Both the position numbers and the translations under genes were made by a program. A stretch of DNA of 64,000 nucleotides from an uncultured Gammaproteobacteria bacterium. Lineage in GTDB: Bacteria > Pseudomonadota > Gammaproteobacteria > PS1 > Pseudothioglobaceae. Positions 7,832-56,858 of the stretch are shown piece after piece; position 1 is the stretch's first letter; every line of letters starts with the position of its first letter. Below the pieces are notes generated by a model. The model was not told the DNA's origin and ran no database searches. It saw only the letters and a program-made list of their open reading frames with translations. Location of the stretch: assembly GCA_902606745.1 (NCBI GenBank), contig CACLHR010000008.1:1-64000 (forward strand). Direction: 5' to 3'.

Positions 7832-8362
7832 TCAACTGTTACCCTTGTTGTTAAATTCTTCCATAGTATGAAGCATTGTTCTTAAGCTGTCTATAGTAGT
7901 TTCGAATTCATCGCTCGTTAAGTCAGATACAGCAACATCTTCGATTTCATGATATTTTGAAAAGACTTTTTCCATAAGCTCTTCACCAGCCTTGTTGATA
8001 TGAACAACAACTCTTCTAGCGTCATTTGGATGGGCAAGTCTTTGACAATAACCATGTTTTTCTAGCGTTATTAATATTCCTGTCAATGTACTTTTTGCAA
8101 TGCCAGCATTTTTAGCCAATTTTGCAGTCTCAAGATCTCCCCAAACCCACAATACCCACATAACAACAAAGCCAGAAAAGGATAGGTTAAATTCCTTGAA
8201 CACATGCTTTTCTGCATAACTTCTGATAATTGATGTAAGTCTGAAAGCGTTTGAAATAATTGAGACCGACCTACCATATAGTCCAACAGAAATTAAGTGC
8301 TGCTTGGCCTTCTCTTCAGCACTTGTGGCTTTTGGATGAGATTTATTTACAGGCTTATCCAT
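7832..8362 (-). CDS. MarR-family transcriptional regulator, likely controller of the adjacent catabolic island
   Basis: Winged-helix dimeric repressor family that usually releases DNA on binding aromatic or phenolic ligands. The helix-turn-helix region is at about 70-125, with LAKNAGIAKSTLTGIL as recognition helix and the wing at NDARRVVVHIN. An N-terminal extension of about 30 polar residues precedes the fold. I use the ATG at 8362; a TTG one codon upstream (8365) is also possible. It lies 30 nt downstream of the decarboxylase-family gene on the same strand, so the two are probably co-transcribed from the divergent region at 9194-9354, which has two copies of the proposed operator. The regulon assignment is inference. 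Confidence 0.88.
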   Translation of the reverse strand: MDKPVNKSHPKATSAEEKAKQHLISVGLYGRSVSIISNAFRLTSIIRSYAEKHVFKEFNLSFSGFVVMWVLWVWGDLETAKLAKNAGIAKSTLTGILITLEKHGYCQRLAHPNDARRVVVHINKAGEELMEKVFSKYHEIEDVAVSDLTSDEFETTIDSLRTMLHTMEEFNNKGNS

Positions 8363-8392
8363 CAAAGATTCTCATTAAATAGTTAACTGTGG

Positions 8393-9193
8393 TTATGTTA
8401 AATTCTCTCTAGCCAGGGTTGTACCGCCCTTCCAAGAAACACCAACTTGACGGTAATAGCCCTGAATTAGTTCCTCAGGTTCGAGTAAATGAAATTCCTC
8501 AACCGGTGAGGAGAACAATTCAAGTTCAAAAGAACCTTTAAAAGTTAGACCAATCTCAGCGTCAAAACCTGACATTGTGACCACTTCATTTAAACTGTCT
8601 TTCCCATCGCTTTCAATTGCAGGCATCCATCGATTGTGAAGCATTGGTAAAGCATTAACAAATCCAGCGTGATCTGATTCTGCCTCAATAGTGAACTTGG
8701 CTTGAACTAGTCGTCGATCATAAGCTGCCAGAGTAGCTCCAAAAACACCTCCAGGGGCAAGACGGGGTCCGGCCTTTCCTACAGTAGTTGACCTCGTTAA
8801 ATGAATGGAACCAATTTTTTTCGGATAGCCCTGAAATTGACCACGAGCGGCTGAAAAATCCTTATCCACCCAAATATAAGTACAACGTGAGTAAGTTTTT
8901 CCTTGATATTTACAACGAACAACAAAAAACACCTCTTTATATTGAGCACGCACAGGGTCTAATAATTCGTTAAAGTTATCACTACAGCTTTGCCAATCTG
9001 CCCAGATAACAGCAACAGCTCCGGGGTCTTCATCAGCCAACTCGATTCCATCAGGCAAGAGCTCAGCTACACGGTCAGGATTAGTTCGATACTCTAAGGT
9101 TAACAAGTCTCCCGAATAGTGCCAAGGTACATTAGGAATTAATGACGAAACACCAGTGTGAGTTCTAGGGAAAAGAAAGCCTTTTAAAGACAT
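8393..9193 (-). CDS. Acetoacetate decarboxylase-family protein
   Basis: The acetoacetate decarboxylase fold uses a Schiff-base lysine to decarboxylate or rearrange beta-keto acids, and some members do aldol-type chemistry. The paired lysines in GYPKKIGSI (about residue 124) match the catalytic lysine and its pKa-lowering neighbour. The fold motifs LLTLEYRTNPDRVAELLP near the start and GGVFGATLAAYDRR in the middle are visible. Length 266 aa is normal. It is divergent from the FAH-P450 operon and upstream of marR. In this setting it may handle a keto-acid ring-cleavage product; the actual substrate cannot be read from sequence. Confidence 0.85.
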   Translation of the reverse strand: MSLKGFLFPRTHTGVSSLIPNVPWHYSGDLLTLEYRTNPDRVAELLPDGIELADEDPGAVAVIWADWQSCSDNFNELLDPVRAQYKEVFFVVRCKYQGKTYSRCTYIWVDKDFSAARGQFQGYPKKIGSIHLTRSTTVGKAGPRLAPGGVFGATLAAYDRRLVQAKFTIEAESDHAGFVNALPMLHNRWMPAIESDGKDSLNEVVTMSGFDAEIGLTFKGSFELELFSSPVEEFHLLEPEELIQGYYRQVGVSWKGGTTLARENLT

Positions 9194-9232
9194 ATATAAC
9201 TATTACAATTAATTGTGATAAACATATGATAC

Positions 9233-9248
9233 CATTCGGGAGCGAATG
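9233..9248. promoter_or_regulatory. Perfect 6-bp inverted repeat, probable MarR operator facing the decarboxylase-marR operon
   Basis: CATTCG-GGAG-CGAATG, with core TTCG-N4-CGAA at 9235-9246. Its spacing is identical to the palindrome at 15651-15662. It lies about 40 nt upstream of the decarboxylase start, so it could give autoregulation of marR. Confidence 0.6.
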
Positions 9249-9292
9249 AAATTATCAAAATTTCAATATATAGCTCTGAAATTAAGTCATAA

Positions 9293-9339
9293 TTCATAAA
9301 TCATCGTATATAATATATAATCATTCGTACCCAAACGAA
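9293..9339 (+). promoter_or_regulatory. Promoter of the FAH-P450 operon with overlapping operator
   Basis: TTCATA at 9293-9298 and TATAAT at 9316-9321 are 17 bp apart; a second TATAAT is at 9309-9314. Immediately downstream, TTCGTACCCAAA (9324-9335) matches the island operator TTCG-N4-CRAA. The same site can also be read as a wider inverted repeat, TTCGT-N6-ACGAA (9324-9339). A repressor here would cover the transcription start. Confidence 0.6.
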
Positions 9340-9354
9340 ATATAGGAATAAAGT

Positions 9355-10245
9355 ATGCCAACCAAAGAATATCGCAAAATACTATTAAATGGACAATCGA
9401 TCCAAGTAACTGTTGAGGGAGATGAGCTAGTTACTGAAGATGGACAAAGTGTTGATATCGAAGAAGCACAACATCTTCCACCTACTCAACCCTCGAAGAT
9501 TATATGTGTACATCTAAACTATGAAAGTCGCGTTAAGGAATATATAACAAAGCTACCACCGGCCCCAACATATTTTCATAAACCTATCACTGCACTTAAT
9601 AGCCATAAAGGTGATGTTGTAAGACCTGAACGTTGCAAATGGCTAAACTATGAAGGCGAGATTGCCATAGTAATCGGTCGAAATTGTCGTAATATAAGCC
9701 CTGCTGATGCGAGACAATACATTGCAGGTTATACGATAGCTAATGATTACGGTTTGCATGATTTTAGAGATACAGATGCAGGGTCAATGCTTAGAGTTAA
9801 AGGTTCAGATACGCTTTGCCCAGTAGGACCAGGTTTAGTTACTGGTTGGGATTTCCATAACAAGGGAATCCGCACAATTGTTAATGGGAAAGTTATGCAA
9901 GATGCTAATACTAGCGAGATGGAGTGGGATATGAACTATCTTCTAGCTGATATAGCTCGCAATATTACTTTAGCACCTGGAGACTTACTACTCTCAGGTA
10001 CACCCGCAAACAGTCGCCCTGTTCAACCAGGTGATGTCGTTGAAGTTGAGGTAGAAGGTTTAGGCCTGCTATCCAATACAATAGTTAATGGTGCCGCTAT
10101 TCGTGATGATGTCGGTGCACAACCTTCTAGCTCTGAAGAGGTTGTATCTACTGCTATGGGTGGTGATTGGGAATTTCGTGGCCAAAGAGCTGCAGGTGGG
10201 CAAGGTGCGAAACATTATAAATCCGCTGTAGAAACTAAAAAATAG
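9355..10245 (+). CDS. Fumarylacetoacetate hydrolase-family enzyme (HpcE/HpaG-like isomerase/decarboxylase)
   Basis: FAH-family enzymes use a divalent metal to cleave or decarboxylate dioxo acids. HpaG/HpcE members decarboxylate and isomerise intermediates of homoprotocatechuate meta-cleavage. The metal-site region YEGEIAIVIGRNCRNIS with its paired glutamates (about residues 99-115), GYTIANDYGLHDF with the aspartate, KGSDTLCPVGP and the C-terminal LLSGTPANSRPVQPGD are clear. A C-terminal tail of about 40 residues after the fold is unusual. An AGGA ribosome site precedes the ATG. It is first in a five-gene operon (FAH, P450, ligase, dehydrogenase, ferredoxin). Confidence 0.88.
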   Translation: MPTKEYRKILLNGQSIQVTVEGDELVTEDGQSVDIEEAQHLPPTQPSKIICVHLNYESRVKEYITKLPPAPTYFHKPITALNSHKGDVVRPERCKWLNYEGEIAIVIGRNCRNISPADARQYIAGYTIANDYGLHDFRDTDAGSMLRVKGSDTLCPVGPGLVTGWDFHNKGIRTIVNGKVMQDANTSEMEWDMNYLLADIARNITLAPGDLLLSGTPANSRPVQPGDVVEVEVEGLGLLSNTIVNGAAIRDDVGAQPSSSEEVVSTAMGGDWEFRGQRAAGGQGAKHYKSAVETKK

Positions 10246-10269
10246 TTGAGCATTATCTCGGAAAAAGTA

Positions 10270-11547
10270 ATGGTAAAAACAGTCAGCCCAAATAACAACG
10301 ACGATATCAATGCAGATATTACTAGTCACGATACTTTTGAAAAAGGCTTTCCACATTTGGCATTTAAACGGATGCGTGATGAAGACCCCTGTGCTTGGAT
10401 AGATGAGACTGATGGTGGAAGCGGTTTCTGGTCAGTCTCCCGATACAAAGATATTAAAGAGGTTAACGGTTTACCAAAAATTTTTAGCTCAGCTCAAGGA
10501 ATTCGTCTAGAAGAGCAATCAAAAGAAGAATACGAAGCTCGCAAGACATTCCAGGAGACTGACCCACCAGTTCATACCCGTCAGAGAATGATGTTTCATC
10601 GTGGATTTACACGTAAACTAATTTCAACCTATGAACCAATGATTCGTGATATTTGTAACGATATTATTAATGAAGCAGTTGACTTGGGTGAAGTCGACGC
10701 CACTAAGGAGATTGCTAGAAAACTACCAATGAGAATGTTGGGTCGTGTTGTTGGTACTCCAGATGAAGATGCAGAGTGGTTAGTTTCAAGAGGTGACTCA
10801 ATGATTGCTAACAGTGACCCAGATTTTACAGACTATGTTATTGACAAGGTTGATACAGATGAATATCGATTTTTGCCTTTTCGCTCACCTGCTGGAAAAG
10901 AGATTTATGATTATGGAGAAAAACAAAAGAGGCTTCGTGAAAATCACGATATGGGTGATGTGATGTCAATGTTATTGCAACCAAACAAGCAGGGAGACAA
11001 GCTATCAGACCTCGAATTTAAAAACTTCTTTGCGCTCATGGTGGCTGCTGGAAATGATACAACTCGATATTCGATGGCATCTTCAATGCATGCTATAGCC
11101 AATAATCCGTATATTTTTGACTGCCTAAAATCTACACCAGATGACGCCCCAGTTTGGGCCAGTGCTACCGAAGAGTTTATCAGATGGGCTTCACCAACTA
11201 TGCACTTTAGACGCACTGCTACGGAGGATTATGAACTTCATGGAAAGCAAATCAGAGAGGGAGACAAAGTCGCTATTTGGTTTACTTCAGGGAATTACGA
11301 TGAACGTAAGTTTTCTGACCCATTTAGTCTTATATTAGAGAGAGAAAATAATCAACATATCGCTTTTGGTCAAGGTGGTCCTCATGCATGCTTGGGTATG
11401 TGGCTTGCACGATTAGAAGTTCGTGTGGCTATGCAGGAATTGCTTAAAAGGGTTTCGAAAATTGAGCAAATCGCCCCCGAAAAATACTTGCGATCTAATT
11501 TTATTCGGGGAATAAAAAACTTGCCTGTTAGGCTAACATCAGCATAA
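10270..11547 (+). CDS. Cytochrome P450
   Basis: Soluble bacterial class I P450. The I-helix motif AGNDTTRY (oxygen activation), the ExxR motif in EEFIRW and the heme-binding loop FGQGGPHACLG with the cysteine ligand at about residue 374 are present. The GGPHxCLG form resembles CYP125/CYP142-type enzymes more than camphor-type ones. I start at ATG 10270 behind GGAAAAAG; the frame is open to a TTG at 10246, right after the FAH stop. The ferredoxin at 14366 in the same operon is the likely electron donor; a dedicated reductase is not in the operon. It probably hydroxylates or dealkylates the island's substrate. Confidence 0.95.
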   Translation: MVKTVSPNNNDDINADITSHDTFEKGFPHLAFKRMRDEDPCAWIDETDGGSGFWSVSRYKDIKEVNGLPKIFSSAQGIRLEEQSKEEYEARKTFQETDPPVHTRQRMMFHRGFTRKLISTYEPMIRDICNDIINEAVDLGEVDATKEIARKLPMRMLGRVVGTPDEDAEWLVSRGDSMIANSDPDFTDYVIDKVDTDEYRFLPFRSPAGKEIYDYGEKQKRLRENHDMGDVMSMLLQPNKQGDKLSDLEFKNFFALMVAAGNDTTRYSMASSMHAIANNPYIFDCLKSTPDDAPVWASATEEFIRWASPTMHFRRTATEDYELHGKQIREGDKVAIWFTSGNYDERKFSDPFSLILERENNQHIAFGQGGPHACLGMWLARLEVRVAMQELLKRVSKIEQIAPEKYLRSNFIRGIKNLPVRLTSA

Positions 11548-11579
11548 TATGGTACTGAATAATTAAGTAAAGGAGAAAA

Positions 11580-12866
11580 ATGAATAATTACAGAAGAGTT
11601 CGAGTGTTATTCTCAGATCACTTGGGTTTAGCAAGAGGAAAATATCAACCTATAAAGACTGCAGCTGGTGGTGAGGCAAGATTTTGTATTAGCCTTTACG
11701 GCCTTACCTATGATAAGCAGTTATTACCAGTACCTGGCAGCGGATTACTTGATGGCTTGCCTGATGTGGTTGCTAAATTCAAAGAAGAAGACGTTCGCCC
11801 TTCCTGGGAAGCTGACACGGGTGTCGTTGTTCCCGATATTGAATTTAAAGGAGAACCTTTGGCGCATTGTGGACGTAATGTATTGAAAAAAACAATAGCC
11901 CAGTTTGAAAAAATAGGTTTAACACCATATGTTGGAATAGAATTAGAAGCCTATGTTTTTCAAAAAGATAGCAATGACAAGTGGGTCCCGTACAATACTC
12001 CAGGAGCCTACGTCTATGGTACCGGTTCAACAGTTGATCCTGTGGGTCTAATTGATGAGGTTTGGGAGCAAGCTGAAGCTTGCGGTATTGAGCTAGAATC
12101 TTTCAACTCAGAGTTCGATTCACCACAATTTGAATTGACTCTAAAGTACGACAAAGCTTTAGAAGCGGTTGATCAGATATTCCTATTTAAAGCGATGGCA
12201 AAAGAGATTTTTGAACAGAATGGTTACTTATTAAGTTTCATGCCAAAACCTTTATCGAAAAACGGTGGAAGTGGAATGCACGTCAATTTTAGTTTTAATG
12301 ATAAAAAAGGCAATAATGCCATTTATGATAAGTCTGCCAAAGATGGATTGTCTGATATTGCAAAAAAATCGATTTCTGGTCTTGTACAACACCATGAAGG
12401 TATGTCGGCTTTACTTGCGCCAACAGTTAATTCTTATCGAAGATTGTTGCCTGCAAGTCTTTCAGGGTATTGGGCAAATTGGGGGTACGACCATCGAGGA
12501 GTGACAACTAGAATACCTGATGAACGTGGCGCAGGTACAAGAATTGAATTTAGAATGGCTGATTGCGCTGCAAATCCTTATACTGCAGTTGCAACAGTTC
12601 TTCAAGCTGCTAAGTTGGGTATAGAGAATGACTATGAATTGCCTGACGCAGAAACTCTAGACTGTCTTGAATCTCAAAGCACAGATAGGCATGTTCCAGA
12701 CAACTTGGCTCTTGCATTGGAGGCTTTAAATGCTGATAAAGTTTTATGTCAGGCGGTAGGCCAAGAGCTGGTAGATAATCATACTGCTATCAAAGAGCAA
12801 GAGTGGCAAGACTATGCCACTCATACAACAGATTGGGAATTTGATCAATACCTGAAATATATCTAG
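11580..12866 (+). CDS. Glutamine synthetase-like gamma-glutamyl-amine ligase
   Basis: The glutamine-synthetase fold includes enzymes that join glutamate to an organic amine (PuuA for putrescine, IpuC for isopropylamine, AtdA1 for aniline). The protein starts directly with the beta-grasp strand VRVLFSDHLGLARGK and keeps the metal/ATP residues in GIELEAYVF, NSEFDSPQFEL, GSGMHVNFSF, NSYRRLLPAS and GTRIEFRMADCAANP. The 428-residue length is a little shorter than the second copy in this window (33645-35003). A strong AAAGGAG site precedes ATG 11580. Its neighbours are a P450, an aldehyde dehydrogenase and, in the converging operon, a GATase-like hydrolase, so amine activation is much likelier than ammonia assimilation. 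Substrate unknown. Confidence 0.85.
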   Translation: MNNYRRVRVLFSDHLGLARGKYQPIKTAAGGEARFCISLYGLTYDKQLLPVPGSGLLDGLPDVVAKFKEEDVRPSWEADTGVVVPDIEFKGEPLAHCGRNVLKKTIAQFEKIGLTPYVGIELEAYVFQKDSNDKWVPYNTPGAYVYGTGSTVDPVGLIDEVWEQAEACGIELESFNSEFDSPQFELTLKYDKALEAVDQIFLFKAMAKEIFEQNGYLLSFMPKPLSKNGGSGMHVNFSFNDKKGNNAIYDKSAKDGLSDIAKKSISGLVQHHEGMSALLAPTVNSYRRLLPASLSGYWANWGYDHRGVTTRIPDERGAGTRIEFRMADCAANPYTAVATVLQAAKLGIENDYELPDAETLDCLESQSTDRHVPDNLALALEALNADKVLCQAVGQELVDNHTAIKEQEWQDYATHTTDWEFDQYLKYI

Positions 12867-12875
12867 GATTGGGTG

Positions 12876-14339
12876 ATGTCAAACAGAATTTCTATAAAAG
12901 GCGTTGAGGTTTCTACGGATCACTATATTAATGGAATGCGAGTTTCGTCCGATAAAAAATTTACCGTCATCAATCCAAATAATCCTAGCGAGGTTCTCGC
13001 CGAAGTGTCAAGAGGTGATGCAAAAATAGCTAAACTTGCAGTTTCTGCTGCCCGAGAAGGATTTAATGTTTGGTCAGAAATGAGTGTTGATGAGCGTGCA
13101 TCGATTATGCACAGGCTAGCTGATCTCATCGAGTCTAATATCGACGATATTTCTCTTATTGAGTGCTTAGATATGGGTATGCGCCATGAAAGTCTAAGAA
13201 ACCGTGTAATTCCTAGAGGTGCTAGAAATTTTCGTTCATATGCAGATATTGCCAAAGAATATAAACCAAGGAAATGGCATTCAAATACTACAAAGAATGA
13301 AATTCAACGTATGCCTAGTGGAATTAGTGTAATTATTACTCCCTGGAATGCACCATTTATGTTGTCTACATGGAAATGTGCACCCGCCCTCGCTGCAGGT
13401 AATAGTGTGATTTTGAAGCCAGCTGAATGGTCACCATTGTCAGCATCATTGTTGGGTGATTTGATAGATGAAGCAGGTTTTCCAGCTGGAGTTTTTAATA
13501 TTGTCCAGGGTATTGGTGAAGAAGTTGGGGCGATACTAGTATCAGACCCAAATGTGAATCGTGTTTCATTTACTGGCTCCCCCGAGGCAGCACGCCATAT
13601 TGGTAAATCAGCCGCTGAAAATATCACTCCATTTACTGGTGAGTTGGGTGGAAAAAGTCCATTAATCATCTTTCCAGACGCAGATCTAGAAGCAGCTGTT
13701 ACAAAGGCAGTAGGACAATTTGATGACTCTGGTCAGATTTGTCTTGCAGGAACTAGATTACTGGTGCATTCGTCCATAAAAAATGAATTTTTAATTCGCT
13801 TCTTAGAACTAACTGCCGAACAAAAATTAGGTGCAAGTTTTGATGATGAAACTGAAATTACGCCGATGATCCACCCAGAACACCTTCAAAGTGTTGCTGG
13901 TTTTGTTGACCGAGCTAAAATTAATGGAGATAAGATTCTTTGCGGCGGAAAGGTATTTAAAAATGGCAAGTTGTGGTACGAGCCAACTTTAATCGAGCCT
14001 GTTTCTAATCAATCTGAAGTGGTTCAAAAAGAAATTTTTGGTCCAGTTTTGACACTTCAAACATTTGACACTGAATCAGAAGCGATCGAGTTGGCAAACA
14101 GTACAGAATATGGTCTTGCCGGAATGCTCTATACCAAGAATCGCGACATCGCTGAACGAGTTGGACGTGCAATTCGCGCAGGCACGGTTTGGGTTAACTG
14201 TTTTCTTATTCGTGACCTGACAGCACCGTTCGGTGGTTTTGGTCTGAGTGGCATTGGACGAGAAGGTGGCGATTATGGAATTGATTTTCATAGTGACTTA
14301 AAAACCTTTCAAATACTTGATGATTCTTTATCTGAATAG
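12876..14339 (+). CDS. Aldehyde dehydrogenase (HpaE/semialdehyde dehydrogenase-like)
   Basis: NAD(P)-dependent aldehyde dehydrogenase of 487 residues. The N-anchor is in TPWNAPF (about 158), the general base in FTGELGGKSP (E256) and the nucleophile in GQICLAGTR (C289). The C-terminal RDLTAPFGGFGLSGIGREGG resembles the motif found in 5-carboxymethyl-2-hydroxymuconate semialdehyde dehydrogenase (HpaE). ATG 12876 sits behind AGGA; a GTG is one codon upstream. It could oxidise the ring-cleavage semialdehyde, or an aldehyde from the gamma-glutamyl amine as PuuC does. Both fit its neighbours. Confidence 0.93.
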   Translation: MSNRISIKGVEVSTDHYINGMRVSSDKKFTVINPNNPSEVLAEVSRGDAKIAKLAVSAAREGFNVWSEMSVDERASIMHRLADLIESNIDDISLIECLDMGMRHESLRNRVIPRGARNFRSYADIAKEYKPRKWHSNTTKNEIQRMPSGISVIITPWNAPFMLSTWKCAPALAAGNSVILKPAEWSPLSASLLGDLIDEAGFPAGVFNIVQGIGEEVGAILVSDPNVNRVSFTGSPEAARHIGKSAAENITPFTGELGGKSPLIIFPDADLEAAVTKAVGQFDDSGQICLAGTRLLVHSSIKNEFLIRFLELTAEQKLGASFDDETEITPMIHPEHLQSVAGFVDRAKINGDKILCGGKVFKNGKLWYEPTLIEPVSNQSEVVQKEIFGPVLTLQTFDTESEAIELANSTEYGLAGMLYTKNRDIAERVGRAIRAGTVWVNCFLIRDLTAPFGGFGLSGIGREGGDYGIDFHSDLKTFQILDDSLSE

Positions 14340-14365
14340 TATTTATATTTTTTAGGATGAGGTAA

Positions 14366-14695
14366 ATGGCAACAGTTAAATACATTTTAGAAGATGGTTC
14401 TGAAGTCTTGATTGAAGCAGATGTAGGACAAAATTTAATGCAATTGGCCCTTGATAATAATCTTGATGGTATTGAAGGTGCGTGCGGTGGCTCCTGTATG
14501 TGTGGTACTTGTCACGTTCTAATTGAATCGGTTAAAGGAAAGCAGCTTGAAGAAAGAGATGAAATGGAAACAATAATAATAGAAATGGAAATCGATGAGC
14601 TTGCTCCTCCTAATAGTCGCCTGGGATGTCAGATTACTATACAAGAAGGGATGGAGTCAATCACGGCACGTATTGCCAATCTCAGTAATTTCTAA
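14366..14695 (+). CDS. 2Fe-2S ferredoxin, adrenodoxin type
   Basis: Small electron carrier with cluster ligands in GACGGSCMCGTC plus a later LGCQ cysteine, the adrenodoxin/putidaredoxin arrangement that serves class I P450s. Length 109 aa. AGGATGAGG precedes the ATG. As last gene of the operon led by the FAH-family gene, it is the natural redox partner of the P450 at 10270. It ends 15 nt from the convergent dioxygenase gene, with no terminator hairpin visible between them. Confidence 0.95.
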   Translation: MATVKYILEDGSEVLIEADVGQNLMQLALDNNLDGIEGACGGSCMCGTCHVLIESVKGKQLEERDEMETIIIEMEIDELAPPNSRLGCQITIQEGMESITARIANLSNF

Positions 14696-14710
14696 TATCT
14701 GGTGTAATAT

Positions 14711-15583
14711 TTAAGTCCAGCCCTCAGCAGGTTGGTCAAACCAAAGATGGACTTGACCAGTTCCTGTGGCGTTTTCGTAGTCACCAAACTGGCGACCTTT
14801 GGCTCGACAATTCACTCCACCAATCGCTTCTGCCATAATTAAATAATGTCCAAATTTACCCTCTGGAGCGTATTTATTATATTCATCCATTCCATCAAAT
14901 ACAGAGCGATGGTCACCTTTTTTTAACCAAGCAATTCGCTTCTCATCGGCTTTCCTTGCTTCTGGTGTAATGACGTGAATAGGGTCAGATGCTTCGTGTT
15001 TCTCGAGTTCATCAAGTGGCCAAAACCTATGACTTAATCCTCCGCTAGCTAATAGTACTACACGCTTATCAGATTGCTCTATGGCTTCTTTCAAGCCCTT
15101 ACCAACCTTCATAAAATGCTCTTTCTTAGCAGTACCACAAATACTCATTGAAAGCCACTGTTCATTAGCTTGGAGATATTCAAGCAAATTAACAGTGGGA
15201 TAATGTATTGGCAGGTGTTCATTGTCGTTGGCAGAGCAACGCACGCCATTTTCATTGATCCGTTCTACAATATTATTTGCTAATTCAGGGTTGCCAGTTA
15301 TATCGAATGGAATGCTGTTCATTGTCCGAGGCAACTCCTCGGATGTATAAAAACCTTGACGCCTTTGATGGCTGGTGACAATGAACTCAACAATCGTAAA
15401 CCAATGCGTGTCAATAACAATAACAACATCGGGCTTGAGTGGCTCTAAGATTTCACGTCGCATGTCTTGAAAACCTGTCACTAACGAGATTTCTTTACCT
15501 TCATTTAGAGCATAACGCTGCTCTTTAGTCATCATGATTGTCGGCGCATGGGATACCAATCCAACCCCTACTATTTCACCCAA
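14711..15583 (-). CDS. Class III extradiol ring-cleavage dioxygenase (LigB family, HpaD/HpcB-like)
   Basis: Non-heme Fe(II) dioxygenase that opens catechol rings next to the hydroxyls. VSHAP with H12 and IDTHW with H60 are the likely iron ligands. YTSEELPRTM and LLASGGLSHRF match the homoprotocatechuate 2,3-dioxygenase HpcB/HpaD of E. coli, as does the GTGQV near the C-terminus. Length 290 aa fits. The start codon is TTG behind GGAG. It has its own promoter and operator at 15650-15702, separate from the sulfatase-transporter operon upstream. The catecholic substrate is inferred only from family resemblance. Confidence 0.88.
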   Translation of the reverse strand: MGEIVGVGLVSHAPTIMMTKEQRYALNEGKEISLVTGFQDMRREILEPLKPDVVIVIDTHWFTIVEFIVTSHQRRQGFYTSEELPRTMNSIPFDITGNPELANNIVERINENGVRCSANDNEHLPIHYPTVNLLEYLQANEQWLSMSICGTAKKEHFMKVGKGLKEAIEQSDKRVVLLASGGLSHRFWPLDELEKHEASDPIHVITPEARKADEKRIAWLKKGDHRSVFDGMDEYNKYAPEGKFGHYLIMAEAIGGVNCRAKGRQFGDYENATGTGQVHLWFDQPAEGWT

Positions 15584-20117: not shown

Positions 20118-21056
20118 CTAAAGACTACCAATAGTAACCATGGTCGCCCTATCTTTATTGATTTGTGCAGTTGAAGCATCAGCATCCATCCAGTAGATTA
20201 ATGCACCGCTGTTGGCCGCAACTTCTTGCGCCCTATCACTTAGCATTGATCTCTTGGCAACAGCAGTAATCTTATCTTTAACATCCTGTGGTGTGCCTTC
20301 TCCGACAAATAAGCCGTTCCACAAAAATATGTCTAACTCAGGTATCAATTCACCAATTGCTGGTGTGTTCGGTACCTTAGAAATACGCTCATTTGTTATA
20401 GAAACTAAAACTTTCACATCATTTAAGCAAGGCAGAATTAGCTGAATCGTTGTATTAATAACGTCTGCATCACCTGAAGCTAAAGTATTACAGTCCAACA
20501 TGTCAAAGGCAGCATCTGAACCCCATTCGAAGCCCATTATCTTAGCTGCAGCCTTGGTCACCTGTGTTGGTGCCAGTGGGTCACCAAAGTGACCTAGCGT
20601 TACTTTGTTACTTTTAGCATGATAAGCTAATTGTTGAAATGAACTATATGGAGCATCACCTGCTACAGCTATCACAAATGGATAGGTTAGGAAAATCCCT
20701 AGAGGTTCAAAAGTGTCTTTAGTTAAACCCTCTATTCCAATTTCTGGTCCTACAACCGGTACACCGATTACAAATGAACCTACCATTGAACCATCAGGAT
20801 CTGCTGCCGCTACTTCCATCGCACCTGGGAATGGACCACCGCCACCACCTGGTTTATTAACAACCGCTGCAGCAACACCATATTCAGCCTGAAAGTCTTC
20901 TGCAATCATCCTAGTTAAAACATCTTCAAGATCCCCAGGAGGCCATGGCACAACAAAAGTCACAGGTTTATCAGGATAATCAGCCTGTGCTATTGGCATA
21001 CCTACCATAAAAGTTGAAAGTGCAAAAAGCACTCCAATTAAAATTTTATTCATCAT
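20118..21056 (-). CDS. tctC: Tripartite tricarboxylate transporter, periplasmic binding protein TctC
   Basis: Secreted substrate-binding protein of 312 residues. The signal peptide ends at PIAQA (about residue 25), and the mature protein begins with YPDKPVTFVVPWPPG, the usual start of TctC/Bug proteins. VNKPGGGGGPFPGAMEVAAADPDG matches the ligand-loop region. Two adjacent ATGs lie behind AAAGGAG; I use the first. It leads the tctC-tctB-tctA-sulfatase-GATase operon. Its promoter carries the island operator at 21156-21169. Bug/TctC proteins bind carboxylates, including aromatic ones; the ligand is unknown. Confidence 0.94.
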   Translation of the reverse strand: MMNKILIGVLFALSTFMVGMPIAQADYPDKPVTFVVPWPPGDLEDVLTRMIAEDFQAEYGVAAAVVNKPGGGGGPFPGAMEVAAADPDGSMVGSFVIGVPVVGPEIGIEGLTKDTFEPLGIFLTYPFVIAVAGDAPYSSFQQLAYHAKSNKVTLGHFGDPLAPTQVTKAAAKIMGFEWGSDAAFDMLDCNTLASGDADVINTTIQLILPCLNDVKVLVSITNERISKVPNTPAIGELIPELDIFLWNGLFVGEGTPQDVKDKITAVAKRSMLSDRAQEVAANSGALIYWMDADASTAQINKDRATMVTIGSL

Positions 21057-21204: not shown

Positions 21205-21298
21205 TTTATTCAATTTAAATTTACAATAACTTTTTTCAATAATCAAGAACGTAATCTAGTTCTCACAAGATAATAAACCGGCGTCGCTACGATTTCAG

Positions 21299-23452
21299 CT
21301 AATGGTATGGTTTAACCAATAAAGTTTCAGCATCAAGTTGATAATCCTTTTCTGTCGCATTTATTAAACGACGTTCACGAATGAATGGCTTATGTTGGTC
21401 GGGGTTATCCGCATCAAATTCTCTTGCAAGACGAGTTCCAGAAAAAGTTGCCTGTGCAATTACGTTTGGCGTGTGAGCGTCACCGATTAAATGTATAGAC
21501 TTAATTCCAGCATTGGACATTTCATCAGGCGACCCTTGTAGTTGATCATATAAATCGCAATTAGAAGTTCTGTGCGTGACTAACATAACACTATCGTATT
21601 CGACAATCATTTCCTCACCTTTCCATATATTCACAAGAGTTGCATTTCCGTTTTCAACAGCTACTGCGACATGCTGATGAATCGTTGTAACACCGAGTTC
21701 AAGAAGTCGCATTAACATTCGTTGCTCTTCCAAAACCAGACGGAGGTAAGGGCCAACGGTTTCTCCATAGGTAGCGTATGTTACTTCATGGCCATTTTCT
21801 GCAATAAGTTCCGCCATAGCAGAACCCATATAGTAAGGATCATTGTCGATTACTAATACTCGTTTTCCGAGTTTTTTCCCATGTACACAATACTGTTCTG
21901 GATTACAAATTTCCGGCTTTGAAGCGTCAGCACCAACTATATAATCATGAAGTAGTGATGACATACCCGTTTCGTCCCAGTTAGAACCGGTTGCGAAAAC
22001 AATGCGCTCAGCTCCGGATTCAAGAACATCTTGATAATTAAGCCGATTATTTAAGATAATTTGTACATTGGTTTTTGTTCTAATTTGCGTTTCCCGCCAA
22101 TCAATAACACGCTTCCAAGCCCCAAAATTAGGCAGTTTAGAAACCCAACGTAAATGACCGCCTATTTCAGCTTCAGCTTCAATTAGATGGACTGTATTAT
22201 AGCCACGAAGACCTAAAGTCATAGCACACTCAAGCCCAGCAGGGCCTGCCCCAATAACAACAATTGGTAGATCAGGATTTTTTGTTGGAATATATTTTTC
22301 AGGATGCCATCCCCTACGATATTCTTCACCAGAAGTTGGATTCTGAGTGCACCAAATAGGCGGCCCACCTTTTTCCCATCGAGAAACACAAATATTGCAA
22401 CCAATACATTCTCGGATATCATTGTATCGACCTTCCTCTATTTTTTTTGGTAGAAATGGGTCGGCAATAGATGGACGAGCTGCCCCAATAATATCGCACT
22501 GGCCTGAATTTATTGCTTTAATCATAACTTCCGGATCTGTAAAGCGACCAACATTTATAACTGGTTTTTTAGAGGCTTTTTTTGCATATTGAGTATACTG
22601 GGCTTGATGATTTGAATCAAAGAACCGGGAAGATCCTGCATCCTCTCCCCAGTTTAGAGTGCCAATATTTATATCCCAATAATCAACCAGATCGTCCATT
22701 GCCTTGATGAAAGCTACGCCCTCATCTTCAGCTTTTGTTCCCAAATCTCCAAGACCAAAAGGTTCAGGCAATGTATCAATTGGAAAACGTATTCCAATTG
22801 CACAGTCATCAATTTCTTCTCTCATCATCTCTAACAATTCTCGAGTAAAACGACATCGGTTTTCAAAGGAACCACCATATTCGTCAGTACGTTTGTTGTG
22901 AGAACGGTACAAGAAATGCTGAGGTATTGTCGCGAGACCTACGAAAAGAGTCAGCAAATCAAAACCTGCTGCCCTTGCTCTTAAAGCTCCATCCACATGT
23001 TCACGTTGTATTTGTCGAATTTCTTTAATTGTCATCGCCCTGGCACTTGCCATGGGTTCAAATTCATGTGGTATTTGTGAGGCTGCTCGAGTTGGTTCAC
23101 GGGTTTCTGCATTGAAGCCAAAGGAAGTGGCATGAGTAAGCTCCACACCAGCAAGGCCACCATGAGTATGGATACTATCGCACATCAAGGATAAATTCCT
23201 AACGTCACCTTCATCAATAATTTTACTTCCAACCCATGGATGAATATCACTATCATTTGTTATAAAACAAACTTCCGTAAAAACTGCCCCCCAACCACCT
23301 TCAGCTTTCATTCCTCGAAAAGATGCCTGCATTCCTGGTTTATCTGATCCAGCTCCATTACAGTGAGGTACTTGCCAGAATCGGTTTTTAAGGGTTTTTG
23401 GTCCAAGTTTGATTGGTTCAAAAAGAATATCGTGACGTTTCTCTCTAGCCAT
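21299..23452 (-). CDS. Trimethylamine dehydrogenase-family flavoprotein with altered active site
   Basis: Old-yellow-enzyme barrel (about 1-380) fused to 4Fe-4S, ADP-binding and NAD-like domains, 717 residues. HDILFEPIKLGPKTLKNRF and the FMN-attaching cysteine in QVPHC (C31) match trimethylamine dehydrogenase, as do cluster ligands C349, C352, C355 and C368 in CIGCNICVSRWEKGGPPIWC. By alignment from memory, the cluster-proximal bowl Trp (W359), W268 and D271 are kept, but Tyr60, Tyr169 and His172 of the Methylophilus enzyme become Val61, Phe170 and Leu173. The substrate is therefore probably not trimethylamine. It starts 15 nt after murD behind AGGAG. An N-demethylase-like role on an amine is plausible. 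Confidence 0.88.
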   Translation of the reverse strand: MAREKRHDILFEPIKLGPKTLKNRFWQVPHCNGAGSDKPGMQASFRGMKAEGGWGAVFTEVCFITNDSDIHPWVGSKIIDEGDVRNLSLMCDSIHTHGGLAGVELTHATSFGFNAETREPTRAASQIPHEFEPMASARAMTIKEIRQIQREHVDGALRARAAGFDLLTLFVGLATIPQHFLYRSHNKRTDEYGGSFENRCRFTRELLEMMREEIDDCAIGIRFPIDTLPEPFGLGDLGTKAEDEGVAFIKAMDDLVDYWDINIGTLNWGEDAGSSRFFDSNHQAQYTQYAKKASKKPVINVGRFTDPEVMIKAINSGQCDIIGAARPSIADPFLPKKIEEGRYNDIRECIGCNICVSRWEKGGPPIWCTQNPTSGEEYRRGWHPEKYIPTKNPDLPIVVIGAGPAGLECAMTLGLRGYNTVHLIEAEAEIGGHLRWVSKLPNFGAWKRVIDWRETQIRTKTNVQIILNNRLNYQDVLESGAERIVFATGSNWDETGMSSLLHDYIVGADASKPEICNPEQYCVHGKKLGKRVLVIDNDPYYMGSAMAELIAENGHEVTYATYGETVGPYLRLVLEEQRMLMRLLELGVTTIHQHVAVAVENGNATLVNIWKGEEMIVEYDSVMLVTHRTSNCDLYDQLQGSPDEMSNAGIKSIHLIGDAHTPNVIAQATFSGTRLAREFDADNPDQHKPFIRERRLINATEKDYQLDAETLLVKPYH

Positions 23453-54743: not shown

Positions 54744-56816
54744 TTATTTAAGGTTTGGCATTTCGCGCATATACATGGCACGCTCAATTTCAATTTCAGG
54801 TGTTTCAAAGTTTTCAGCAGCAAGGTGGCCTGAATAAATTGAGTCCGCAATAAGTCCAGGTGACTCTGCATCACCAATCAACTGTATATTTTTTGACGAG
54901 CTGCTGCCAAGCGCCTCTTCTTGTTTTATCAATTTATCAAAAAGACTATAATTTGGAATTCTTTCTGTAACCATAATTATGGTCTTACAATCAATAGTAG
55001 TTCTTTTGCCAGTAAAAACACATTTAGCCTCTATGCCTTTGCTGTCTGCCTGTTGAATGCTCTTATTACAGATTATTTCTACGCCCTGATTTAAAAGGGA
55101 TCTTTGCACCCTTGTTTGCTCTAGAGTAGATTCGGTCCATGGAGATACAACGCTTGCAGGAGTTAAAAATACTATTTTGTGGCCAGCAGCACTAAGATGG
55201 TCAGCAATAACCCCTGCTAAATAGCCTTGTTCATCGTCATAGACAATAATGGGATTTTTTAGATTGGTAGTATTTTTTACAGCCTCTTCTGGCGACAATA
55301 CCTTAATTTTATCAAGGCCTTTTATTGGCTTTCTTGTACTTCTTCCAATACCGTCTAGTCGCCAACTAGCTCCTGTAGCTAGAAATATATTATCGATACC
55401 AAGCTCATTTATATGAGTAGCTGTAAGTTCACTATCCTTATATATTTCAATATTATTTTTTTGTTGAATCTCATAAACCCTATTGTCGACAACTCTTTTC
55501 CAAGCTGAAAGTCCCTTTAAATTAGCCTCAAATATAACTCGACCACCGAGCTCTTTTTTAGCTTCTGCCAAAACCACCTGATAGCCACGGCGAGCCAACT
55601 GCAAACTACACTCAAGCCCTGCAGGTCCAGAACCAACAACAAGTACATGCTGATCTGTCTTCTTTGGTTTTATGGTTTCTGGGTCCCAGCCACGCCGCCA
55701 CTCTTCTCCCATTGTTGGATTTTGCGTACAACGTATTGGCACAGAAAAGTTATCACTTGAAACACAAATGTTGCAACCAATACACTCCTTTATTTGATCA
55801 ATCTTTCCAGTTTTTATTTTATTTGGAAGATAAGGATCAGCTATTGAGGCTCTGGCAGCGCCAATAAGATCTAAAACACCTTTTTTTACAAGCGAGGCCA
55901 TTAAGTCAGGTGATGTAATTCTTCCCACACCAACCACTGGCTTCGAAGTAAGCCCCTTCACAAACTCAACATAAGGCAATTGATATCCTTCGTTTGGCTC
56001 AAATCTTGATGTTTGGGAATCGTTTGACCAATCAGAAACATTAACATCCCACAAATCTGGATGTTCAGCTAATAACTCAACAACAGCTCCGCCTTCCTCT
56101 CGAAATTGCATACCATCTTTACCTTTCATTTCGTCTACAGCAAACCGAAAAGCAACACCACAAATATCTCCTATTGCATCAACTGTTTCCTCAAGAAGCT
56201 CTCTTGTTAAACGAATTCGGTTCTCAAGGCTGCCGCCATATTCATCAGAACGAGTATTCATGTTTGGCAATATAAATTGTTGTGCTACTGACATACCATG
56301 CCCTGCATAAACATAAACAATATCAAATCCGGCCTCCTTAGCATTAAGAGCGGCATTACGATGCCACCTTCTAAAATCAGCAATGTCTTTTTTGCTCATG
56401 CGTCTGGCTTGCTTTGGGTATAAAAAGTTAATTGGATAATCTACAGGGGACATAGTTGGTATTCTAGAATAAAGGTTTATAGCATTATGTCCGCTATGGG
56501 TAAGCTCTATTGCTGCAAGAGCTCCATGCTCATGAACAGCTTCTGTCATAAGACGCAATGCAGGAATGTCTTTTTTATCCCAAATCCTTTGCTCAACATA
56601 CGGGGCTAAATCCGAACTTGGATGTATTTCAGCCTCTTCGGTGCTTACAACTCCCCAACCACCTTTTGCTTTTACGCCTCTCATTGCAGCGTGCGCTTGG
56701 GGCCGTAAATGACCCATACCACAGCAATGTGGGACCTGGTAGAAGCGGTTTTTTGTAACAACAGGGCCAATCTTAACAGGCTCAAAAAGCACACTATACT
56801 TTTGATTTTGTTTCAT
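54744..56816 (-). CDS. Trimethylamine dehydrogenase-family flavoprotein, second paralogue
   Basis: About 690 residues with the same domain order as the gene at 21299: FMN barrel, 4Fe-4S site, FAD/ADP-like and NAD-like domains. QVPHC holds the FMN-linking cysteine, and CIGCNICVSSDNFSVPIRC the cluster ligands (last gap one residue shorter than the paralogue). By alignment from memory, the catalytic Tyr-His pair of trimethylamine dehydrogenase is kept (VYVYAGHG) and also the Trp/Asp of DWSND. The bowl Tyr60 becomes Glu, and the cluster-proximal Trp becomes Asp. A cationic amine other than trimethylamine is plausible. I choose ATG 56816 (MKQNQKYSVLFEP) behind AAAGG; the frame is open to 56834. 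Confidence 0.87.
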   Translation of the reverse strand: MKQNQKYSVLFEPVKIGPVVTKNRFYQVPHCCGMGHLRPQAHAAMRGVKAKGGWGVVSTEEAEIHPSSDLAPYVEQRIWDKKDIPALRLMTEAVHEHGALAAIELTHSGHNAINLYSRIPTMSPVDYPINFLYPKQARRMSKKDIADFRRWHRNAALNAKEAGFDIVYVYAGHGMSVAQQFILPNMNTRSDEYGGSLENRIRLTRELLEETVDAIGDICGVAFRFAVDEMKGKDGMQFREEGGAVVELLAEHPDLWDVNVSDWSNDSQTSRFEPNEGYQLPYVEFVKGLTSKPVVGVGRITSPDLMASLVKKGVLDLIGAARASIADPYLPNKIKTGKIDQIKECIGCNICVSSDNFSVPIRCTQNPTMGEEWRRGWDPETIKPKKTDQHVLVVGSGPAGLECSLQLARRGYQVVLAEAKKELGGRVIFEANLKGLSAWKRVVDNRVYEIQQKNNIEIYKDSELTATHINELGIDNIFLATGASWRLDGIGRSTRKPIKGLDKIKVLSPEEAVKNTTNLKNPIIVYDDEQGYLAGVIADHLSAAGHKIVFLTPASVVSPWTESTLEQTRVQRSLLNQGVEIICNKSIQQADSKGIEAKCVFTGKRTTIDCKTIIMVTERIPNYSLFDKLIKQEEALGSSSSKNIQLIGDAESPGLIADSIYSGHLAAENFETPEIEIERAMYMREMPNLK

Positions 56817-56858
56817 GCTAATACCTTTCAACATAAAGCTTTGGAGCTTTATTTTAAC

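What the first reader, a model, noticed from the sequence alone, without database searches (positions are those of the whole stretch)
21299..23452. Trimethylamine-dehydrogenase paralogue with a rebuilt active site
Cofactor residues (FMN cysteine C31, four cluster cysteines) are intact, but the residues aligned to Tyr60, Tyr169 and His172 of the Methylophilus enzyme are Val61, Phe170 and Leu173. Trp268, Trp359 and Asp271 remain. The dehydrogenase machinery is kept while the catalytic Tyr-His pair is lost, so the substrate should differ from tri- or dimethylamine.
Basis: partly seen in the sequence, partly recalled or inferred. Interest (0 to 1): 0.6.

Follow-up and report, generated by a model that had tools for sequence, protein, structure and literature searches.

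The report
Amine-demethylase relative with altered pocket
A marine bacterium carries a flavin and iron-sulfur enzyme related to trimethylamine dehydrogenase whose altered active site is shared by a small family found in several phyla; its neighbours suggest that it strips methyl groups from the nitrogen of a larger, probably ring-containing molecule rather than from small methylamines.

Summary
Window 21299-23452 (-) encodes a 717-aa trimethylamine dehydrogenase (TMADH) homologue (1djn: 702 bits; fold match to 2tmd Z 49.3). The alignment to TMADH is gapless up to residue 213: Y60, Y169, H172 align with V61, F170, L173; C31, the four cluster cysteines, R222, W268, D271 and W359 are kept.

The substitutions belong to a monophyletic subfamily (support 100) in Thioglobus/Pseudothioglobus, other proteobacteria, Actinomycetota and an Acidobacteriota MAG: V/I60 and L172 in 16 of 16, whereas 58 of 60 other relatives have H172. 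Position 169 varies (F 11, Y 5), so the Tyr is not a defining loss.

A GcvT-type folate aminomethyltransferase adjoins the gene in all but two of the orthologous loci, and several loci carry aromatic-ring-cleavage genes. The window's own cassette (TctCBA, sulfatase, LigB dioxygenase, P450) recurs in a Vicinamibacterales MAG. Best reading: an N-demethylating dehydrogenase handing its methylene to folate, acting on a bulky, probably (hetero)aromatic N-methyl compound. The substrate is unproven.

The partner gene is deleted here (19 codons remain) and, separately, in a sister species; a third lost both genes. A new, apparently undescribed variant of a known family; moderate interest.

The parts
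21299..23452 (-). TMADH-family dehydrogenase (V/L subfamily), 717 aa: FMN TIM barrel with C31, 4Fe-4S cysteines C349/C352/C355/C368, C-terminal Rossmann-type domains
21243..21299 (-). Remnant of a deleted GcvT-like aminomethyltransferase: last 19 codons (AEIVATPVYYLVRTRLRS*), matching the C-terminus AEIVATPVYDPERVRSRS* of the intact gene in L038
   Evidence: absent from the rest of the assembly
20118..21056 (-). TctC, periplasmic binding protein of a tripartite tricarboxylate transporter
   Evidence: Pfam PF03401; 67% identical homologue beside the orthologue in L041, 61% in L042
19500..20027 (-). TctB, small membrane subunit
   Evidence: Pfam PF07331
18011..19492 (-). TctA, large membrane subunit
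   Evidence: Pfam PF01970
16428..17996 (-). Sulfatase / phosphoric-sulfuric ester hydrolase
   Evidence: PF00884, NCBIfam PehA 311 bits, below cut-off; 52% homologue in L041
15708..16427 (-). Class I glutamine amidotransferase-like protein
   Evidence: PF00117
14711..15583 (-). LigB-type extradiol dioxygenase, HpaD-like
   Evidence: PF02900; HpaD 139.6 bits, below cut-off; nearest solved 8iq8 DHPA dioxygenase; 63% homologue in L041
14366..14695 (+). 2Fe-2S ferredoxin
12873..14339 (+). Aldehyde dehydrogenase, nearest model HpaE
   Evidence: 477 bits, below cut-off
11580..12866 (+). Glutamine-synthetase-like gamma-glutamyl ligase
10246..11547 (+). Cytochrome P450
   Evidence: 54% homologue at the edge of L041
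9355..10245 (+). FAH-family hydrolase/isomerase, HpaG-like
8393..9193 (-). Acetoacetate-decarboxylase-family protein, MppR-like
7832..8365 (-). MarR-type regulator, HpaR-like
   Evidence: 46 bits

Best explanation
The protein is an N-demethylating amine dehydrogenase of the TMADH family, belonging to a distinct orthologous subfamily (V/I60, L172). FMN bound at C31 takes two electrons from an N-methyl group and passes them one at a time to the 4Fe-4S cluster and then to an external acceptor such as ETF. The N-methylene product is, in the ancestral operon, captured by the adjacent GcvT-type protein on tetrahydrofolate; in some genomes PurU then releases formate. The pocket keeps the tryptophans and Asp but has lost His172, Tyr60 and Tyr174, giving a larger, less polar cavity without the residues that tune a small, strongly basic amine. 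I therefore infer a bulky N-methyl substrate, most likely (hetero)aromatic or attached to an aromatic ring, feeding the ring-cleavage genes beside it. In this species the GcvT partner has been deleted, so the methylene must leave as formaldehyde or go to another folate enzyme. Shown: family, residues, subfamily, operon partner, its deletion. Inferred: reaction, acceptor, cavity size, substrate class.
For: TMADH homology and fold. All FMN and cluster residues kept in 16/16 orthologues with V/I60, L172, T/N174. Monophyly with support 100. GcvT-like gene adjacent in 15 of the 17 orthologous loci searched (14 of the 16 with an unbroken dehydrogenase), the exceptions being the window and L039, with the acidic VDD/IDD motif of GcvT conserved; PurU adjacent in the Aeromicrobium, Kineosporia, Solirubrobacterales and Gemmobacter loci. 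Aromatic-ring genes: LigB + TctCBA + sulfatase + P450 shared by the window and the Vicinamibacterales MAG L041; HpaR/HpaG/HpaE/HpaD-like genes in the window; gentisate-type dioxygenase in L034, L042 and L044 and a 2,5-dihydroxypyridine-dioxygenase-like protein in L034. Within the genus the dehydrogenase co-occurs with LigB: 4 both, 1 LigB only, 24 neither, Fisher p = 2e-4, not corrected for phylogeny. Purifying selection continues after loss of the partner: dN/dS 0.16 and 0.12.
Against: No activity data. The ring-cleavage genes differ between genomes and some loci (e.g. L043, L049) show none in the stretch held. The core cassette persists in G018 without the dehydrogenase, so the two are separable. 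A Stc2-like Rieske demethylase beside the L040 copy would also fit an aliphatic betaine-derived substrate. The electron acceptor was not tested and the cavity was not measured.
Confidence: 0.55

Rival explanations
1. It demethylates an aliphatic N-methyl amino acid or other betaine-derived tertiary amine, in the way of N-methylproline demethylase StcD or dimethylglycine demethylase DgcA, after a Rieske enzyme has removed the first methyl.
For: In L040 a Rieske oxygenase close to stachydrine demethylase (3vca/4qup, about 252 bits; identity of those entries from own knowledge) follows the GcvT-like gene; L077 also has a Rieske gene nearby; TctCBA systems often import carboxylates (own knowledge); StcD is described as an N-methylproline demethylase in PMC12239276.
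Against: The window has no Rieske gene next to the enzyme; its neighbours are ring-cleavage-type genes. Another subfamily that adjoins a Stc2-like Rieske gene (L093) keeps Tyr169 and His172. StcD and DgcA sequences could not be fetched for comparison.
Confidence: 0.25
2. It is still a small-amine dehydrogenase (trimethylamine or dimethylamine) and the substitutions only shift its pH optimum.
For: W264, W355 and D267 equivalents are kept; TMADH mutants at 169/172 are reported to keep some activity (own knowledge).
Against: V/I60 and L172 are fixed across three phyla, with T167 and T/N174 also changed; the TMADH-type pattern Y60/Y169/H172 is kept in a separate clade, which a sister species (G016, L007) carries; the operon context is not that of methylamine use.
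Confidence: 0.1
3. In the window lineage the gene is a leftover on its way to loss, as its partner gene and regulator have already gone.
For: GcvT remnant of 19 codons here, a different remnant in L039, both genes lost in G018.
Against: Open reading frame intact, all cofactor residues kept, dN/dS 0.16 and 0.12 against sister copies.
Confidence: 0.07
4. It works as an ene-reductase or another old-yellow-enzyme-type reduction rather than amine oxidation.
For: The N-terminal domain is of the Oxidored_FMN family; 2-naphthoyl-CoA reductase has a similar layout over 639 residues.
Against: The C31 FMN-linking cysteine and the W264, D267 and W355 equivalents are amine-dehydrogenase features, and the nearest structures are all amine dehydrogenases or oxidases.
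Confidence: 0.03

Closest known systems
Trimethylamine dehydrogenase, Methylophilus (2tmd, 1djn)
   Same: Fold and domain order (Z 49.3, rmsd 1.6 over 691 residues), C30, R222, W264, D267, W355, four cluster cysteines; 49% identity
   Different: Y60 to V, Y169 to F/Y, H172 to L, Y167 and Y174 to T, N57 to F; conserved extra loop around 231-233; GcvT-type partner in the subfamily
Histamine dehydrogenase (3k30, 6de6)
   Same: Fold, cofactor residues
   Different: HADH keeps Y169 and H172 and has Gln at 60 with no Trp355
6-hydroxypseudooxynicotine amine oxidase HisD (6l6j)
   Same: Fold (Z 46.3); acts on an N-methylamine attached to a pyridine ring (own knowledge), a precedent for a bulky substrate in this fold
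   Different: Keeps His172, has Glu at 60, lacks the FMN-linking cysteine and Trp355; about 38% identity
N-methylproline demethylase StcD / dimethylglycine demethylase DgcA
   Same: Proposed chemistry: flavin N-demethylation in betaine breakdown
   Different: Sequences not fetched here, relation not tested
TMAO demethylase Tdm and dimethylglycine oxidase (GcvT-domain fusions)
   Same: Coupling of N-demethylation to a GcvT-type folate domain; the partner gene's best NCBIfam match by E-value is Tdm
   Different: There the folate domain is fused to an unrelated catalytic domain; here it is a separate gene beside a TMADH-type enzyme

Membership tests
TMADH superfamily (FMN + 4Fe-4S amine dehydrogenases) | Full-length homology and fold | tested here: met
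   702 bits to 1djn; Z 49.3 to 2tmd
TMADH superfamily (FMN + 4Fe-4S amine dehydrogenases) | FMN-linking Cys and four cluster Cys | tested here: met
   C31, C349, C352, C355, C368
TMADH superfamily (FMN + 4Fe-4S amine dehydrogenases) | Amine dehydrogenase activity with ETF as acceptor | not testable with these tools
   needs purified protein
Trimethylamine dehydrogenase sensu stricto | Tyr60 of the aromatic bowl | tested here: not met
   V61; V/I in 16/16 orthologues
Trimethylamine dehydrogenase sensu stricto | His172 | tested here: not met
   L173; Leu in 16/16 orthologues
Trimethylamine dehydrogenase sensu stricto | Trp264, Trp355, Asp267 | tested here: met
   W268, W359, D271
Trimethylamine dehydrogenase sensu stricto | Groups with known TMADH in a tree | tested here: not met
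   neighbour of, but outside, the clade with 1djn
Histamine dehydrogenase | Gln at 60, no Trp355, Tyr169 and His172 kept | tested here: not met
StcD / DgcA demethylases | Sequence orthology to StcD or DgcA | not tested
   reference sequences not found in the collections reached
Folate-coupled N-demethylation (dehydrogenase + GcvT pair) | Adjacent intact GcvT-like gene | tested here: not met
   met in 15 of 17 orthologous loci, but in the window only a 19-codon remnant is left

The most novel reading that the evidence does not exclude
A previously unrecognised, cross-phylum N-demethylase subfamily of TMADH fold that does without the His172 of TMADH, is paired with a stand-alone GcvT folate protein, and opens the breakdown of an N-methylated aromatic or heteroaromatic compound in sea and soil.
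Probability: 0.4. Interest if true: 0.6.

Novelty: new variant of a known kind. Interest (0 to 1): 0.42.

Why it matters
If right, it adds a substrate class to a well-studied enzyme fold, offers a natural test of what His172 and Tyr60 do in TMADH, and points to an unassigned N-methylated compound used by Thioglobus/Pseudothioglobus, marine bacteria better known for sulfur oxidation and small methylamines. The conserved operon gives a concrete list of genes and compounds to test.

Tried and rejected
Shifted Tyr/His pair: the alignment is gapless over 2-213, and the nearby H179 is not conserved in the subfamily (N, Y or F elsewhere), so it cannot stand in; H107 and Y182 are conserved and remain candidates. 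Homarine and stachydrine pathways: paper searches gave no gene-level match to this enzyme. No open-access paper found links a TMADH-type enzyme with an adjacent aminomethyltransferase, and none discusses it in Thioglobus; the library lacks most subscription journals. NCBIfam has no equivalog model whose cut-off it reaches. Some dN/dS values for Sulf, TctC and LigB-L048 are artefacts of start or indel mismatch or saturation and were ignored. The first residue table was wrong because minus-strand loci were not reverse-complemented; it was redone. Long reverse-strand ORFs in GC-rich loci (e.g. F10) are spurious.

Full report
What is there. The ORF at 21299-23452 on the minus strand encodes 717 aa. 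It matches trimethylamine dehydrogenase over nearly its whole length (1djn, 702 bits), with the Oxidored_FMN, OYE-like second alpha/beta and Pyr_redox_2 domains. A model built from 37 sequences has mean pLDDT 87.6 and pTM 0.88, and aligns to 2tmd with Z 49.3 and rmsd 1.6 over 691 residues, then to HisD 6l6j and the histamine dehydrogenases.

Residues. R222 is kept. Tyr167, Tyr174 and Asn57 of TMADH are also replaced, by Thr, Thr and Phe.

A subfamily, not an oddity. Orthologues at 60-98% identity occur in three further Thioglobus/Pseudothioglobus genomes, on plasmids of Gemmobacter fulvus and Aminobacter aminovorans, and in Rhodobacterales, Rhizobium, another gammaproteobacterium, Aeromicrobium, Kineosporia, Acidimicrobiaceae, Solirubrobacterales and a Vicinamibacterales MAG. 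In 16 distinct copies position 60 is V (14) or I (2), 172 is L (16), 169 is F (11) or Y (5); in 60 other family members 172 is H in 58. The 16 form one side of a branch with support 100, next to the TMADH clade; a long-branched Rhodococcus sequence attaches at its base with support 86. The subfamily is rare: besides the window's own genome, none of 398 genomes spread over the phylum gave a match at 1e-170 that belongs to it; the single hit (G101, 44%) has the Glu60/His172 pattern.

Context. A GcvT-like gene (PF01571) lies directly beside the dehydrogenase in 15 of the 17 orthologous loci searched (the 16 copies of the tree plus the frameshifted Aminobacter one); the exceptions are the window and L039. 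Its best NCBIfam match by E-value is the C-terminal part of TMAO demethylase, and the acidic VDD/IDD motif of GcvT is conserved. PurU is close by in four loci. This is the basis for proposing N-demethylation with transfer of the methylene to folate. In the window the gene follows MurD by 15 bases and is followed on the same strand by TctC, TctB, TctA, a sulfatase, a glutamine amidotransferase and a LigB dioxygenase. The Vicinamibacterales MAG carries sulfatase (52%), TctA (61%), TctC (67%), LigB (63%), the dehydrogenase (73%), GcvT (59%) and part of a P450 (54%) in one contig. The neighbouring window genes at 7832-15583 resemble HpaR, HpaG, HpaE and HpaD of the homoprotocatechuate route, all below the curated cut-offs, plus a P450, a ferredoxin and a GS-like ligase. 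Elsewhere the subfamily sits near a gentisate-type dioxygenase (L034, L042, L044), a 2,5-dihydroxypyridine-dioxygenase-like protein (L034), or a Stc2-like Rieske oxygenase (L040). I infer a ring-containing or otherwise bulky N-methyl substrate. A further argument, from my own knowledge of TMADH enzymology, is that His172 and Tyr169 help to bind the small amine in its deprotonated form; a weakly basic aryl amine would not need this.

Loss of the partner. The window keeps only the last 19 codons, stop included, of the GcvT-like gene (21243-21299), L039 keeps only about the first 28 codons, and neither genome has another close copy (completeness 82.5% and 95%). In G018 the dehydrogenase and all but 35 codons of the partner are gone while TctCBA-to-P450 stays. 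The different break points point to separate deletions. dN/dS for the dehydrogenase stays at 0.16 (window-L038) and 0.12 (window-L039), so the enzyme appears still to be in use without its partner; how the methylene is then disposed of is unknown.

Verdict. The sequence observation is confirmed; the idea of a different substrate is plausible and better founded than before, but the substrate is inferred from context and has not been shown. The claim that the catalytic Tyr-His pair is lost holds for His only.

Noticed in passing
window 21243-21299 (-); L039 12152-12445; L098 7829-7933: The GcvT-like partner gene has been deleted with different break points in the window species, in L039 and in G018, where the dehydrogenase is gone as well; the TetR gene upstream in L038 and L048 is also missing from the window and L039.
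   Followed up: yes
window 54744-56834 (-): A second TMADH-family gene of the histamine-dehydrogenase-like group (Glu60, Tyr169 and His172 kept, no Trp355), common in the genus and close to the Leisingera copy that adjoins a Rieske oxygenase.
   Followed up: partly
window 7832-15583: Cluster resembling the homoprotocatechuate pathway (HpaR, HpaG, HpaE, HpaD-like) with a P450, ferredoxin, GS-like ligase and an MppR-like protein: an unassigned aromatic pathway in a small marine genome.
   Followed up: partly
L034 12001-14149: The Aminobacter aminovorans plasmid copy is annotated as two ORFs, apparently split by a frameshift.
   Followed up: no
L049 14307-16442: A site-specific integrase and an IS91 transposase lie near the orthologue, and other copies are on plasmids, suggesting horizontal spread.
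   Followed up: no
L035 8001-10166; L037 8001-10142: Two further TMADH-family variants without His172 (Rhodococcus: A60, M169, I172; Shinella: F60, T169, D172), possibly other substrate classes.
   Followed up: no
L094 12303-14354: A Yoonia plasmid has a divergent family member without the FMN-linking Cys, near a Rieske oxygenase, agmatinase and a TctC 61% identical to the window's.
   Followed up: no
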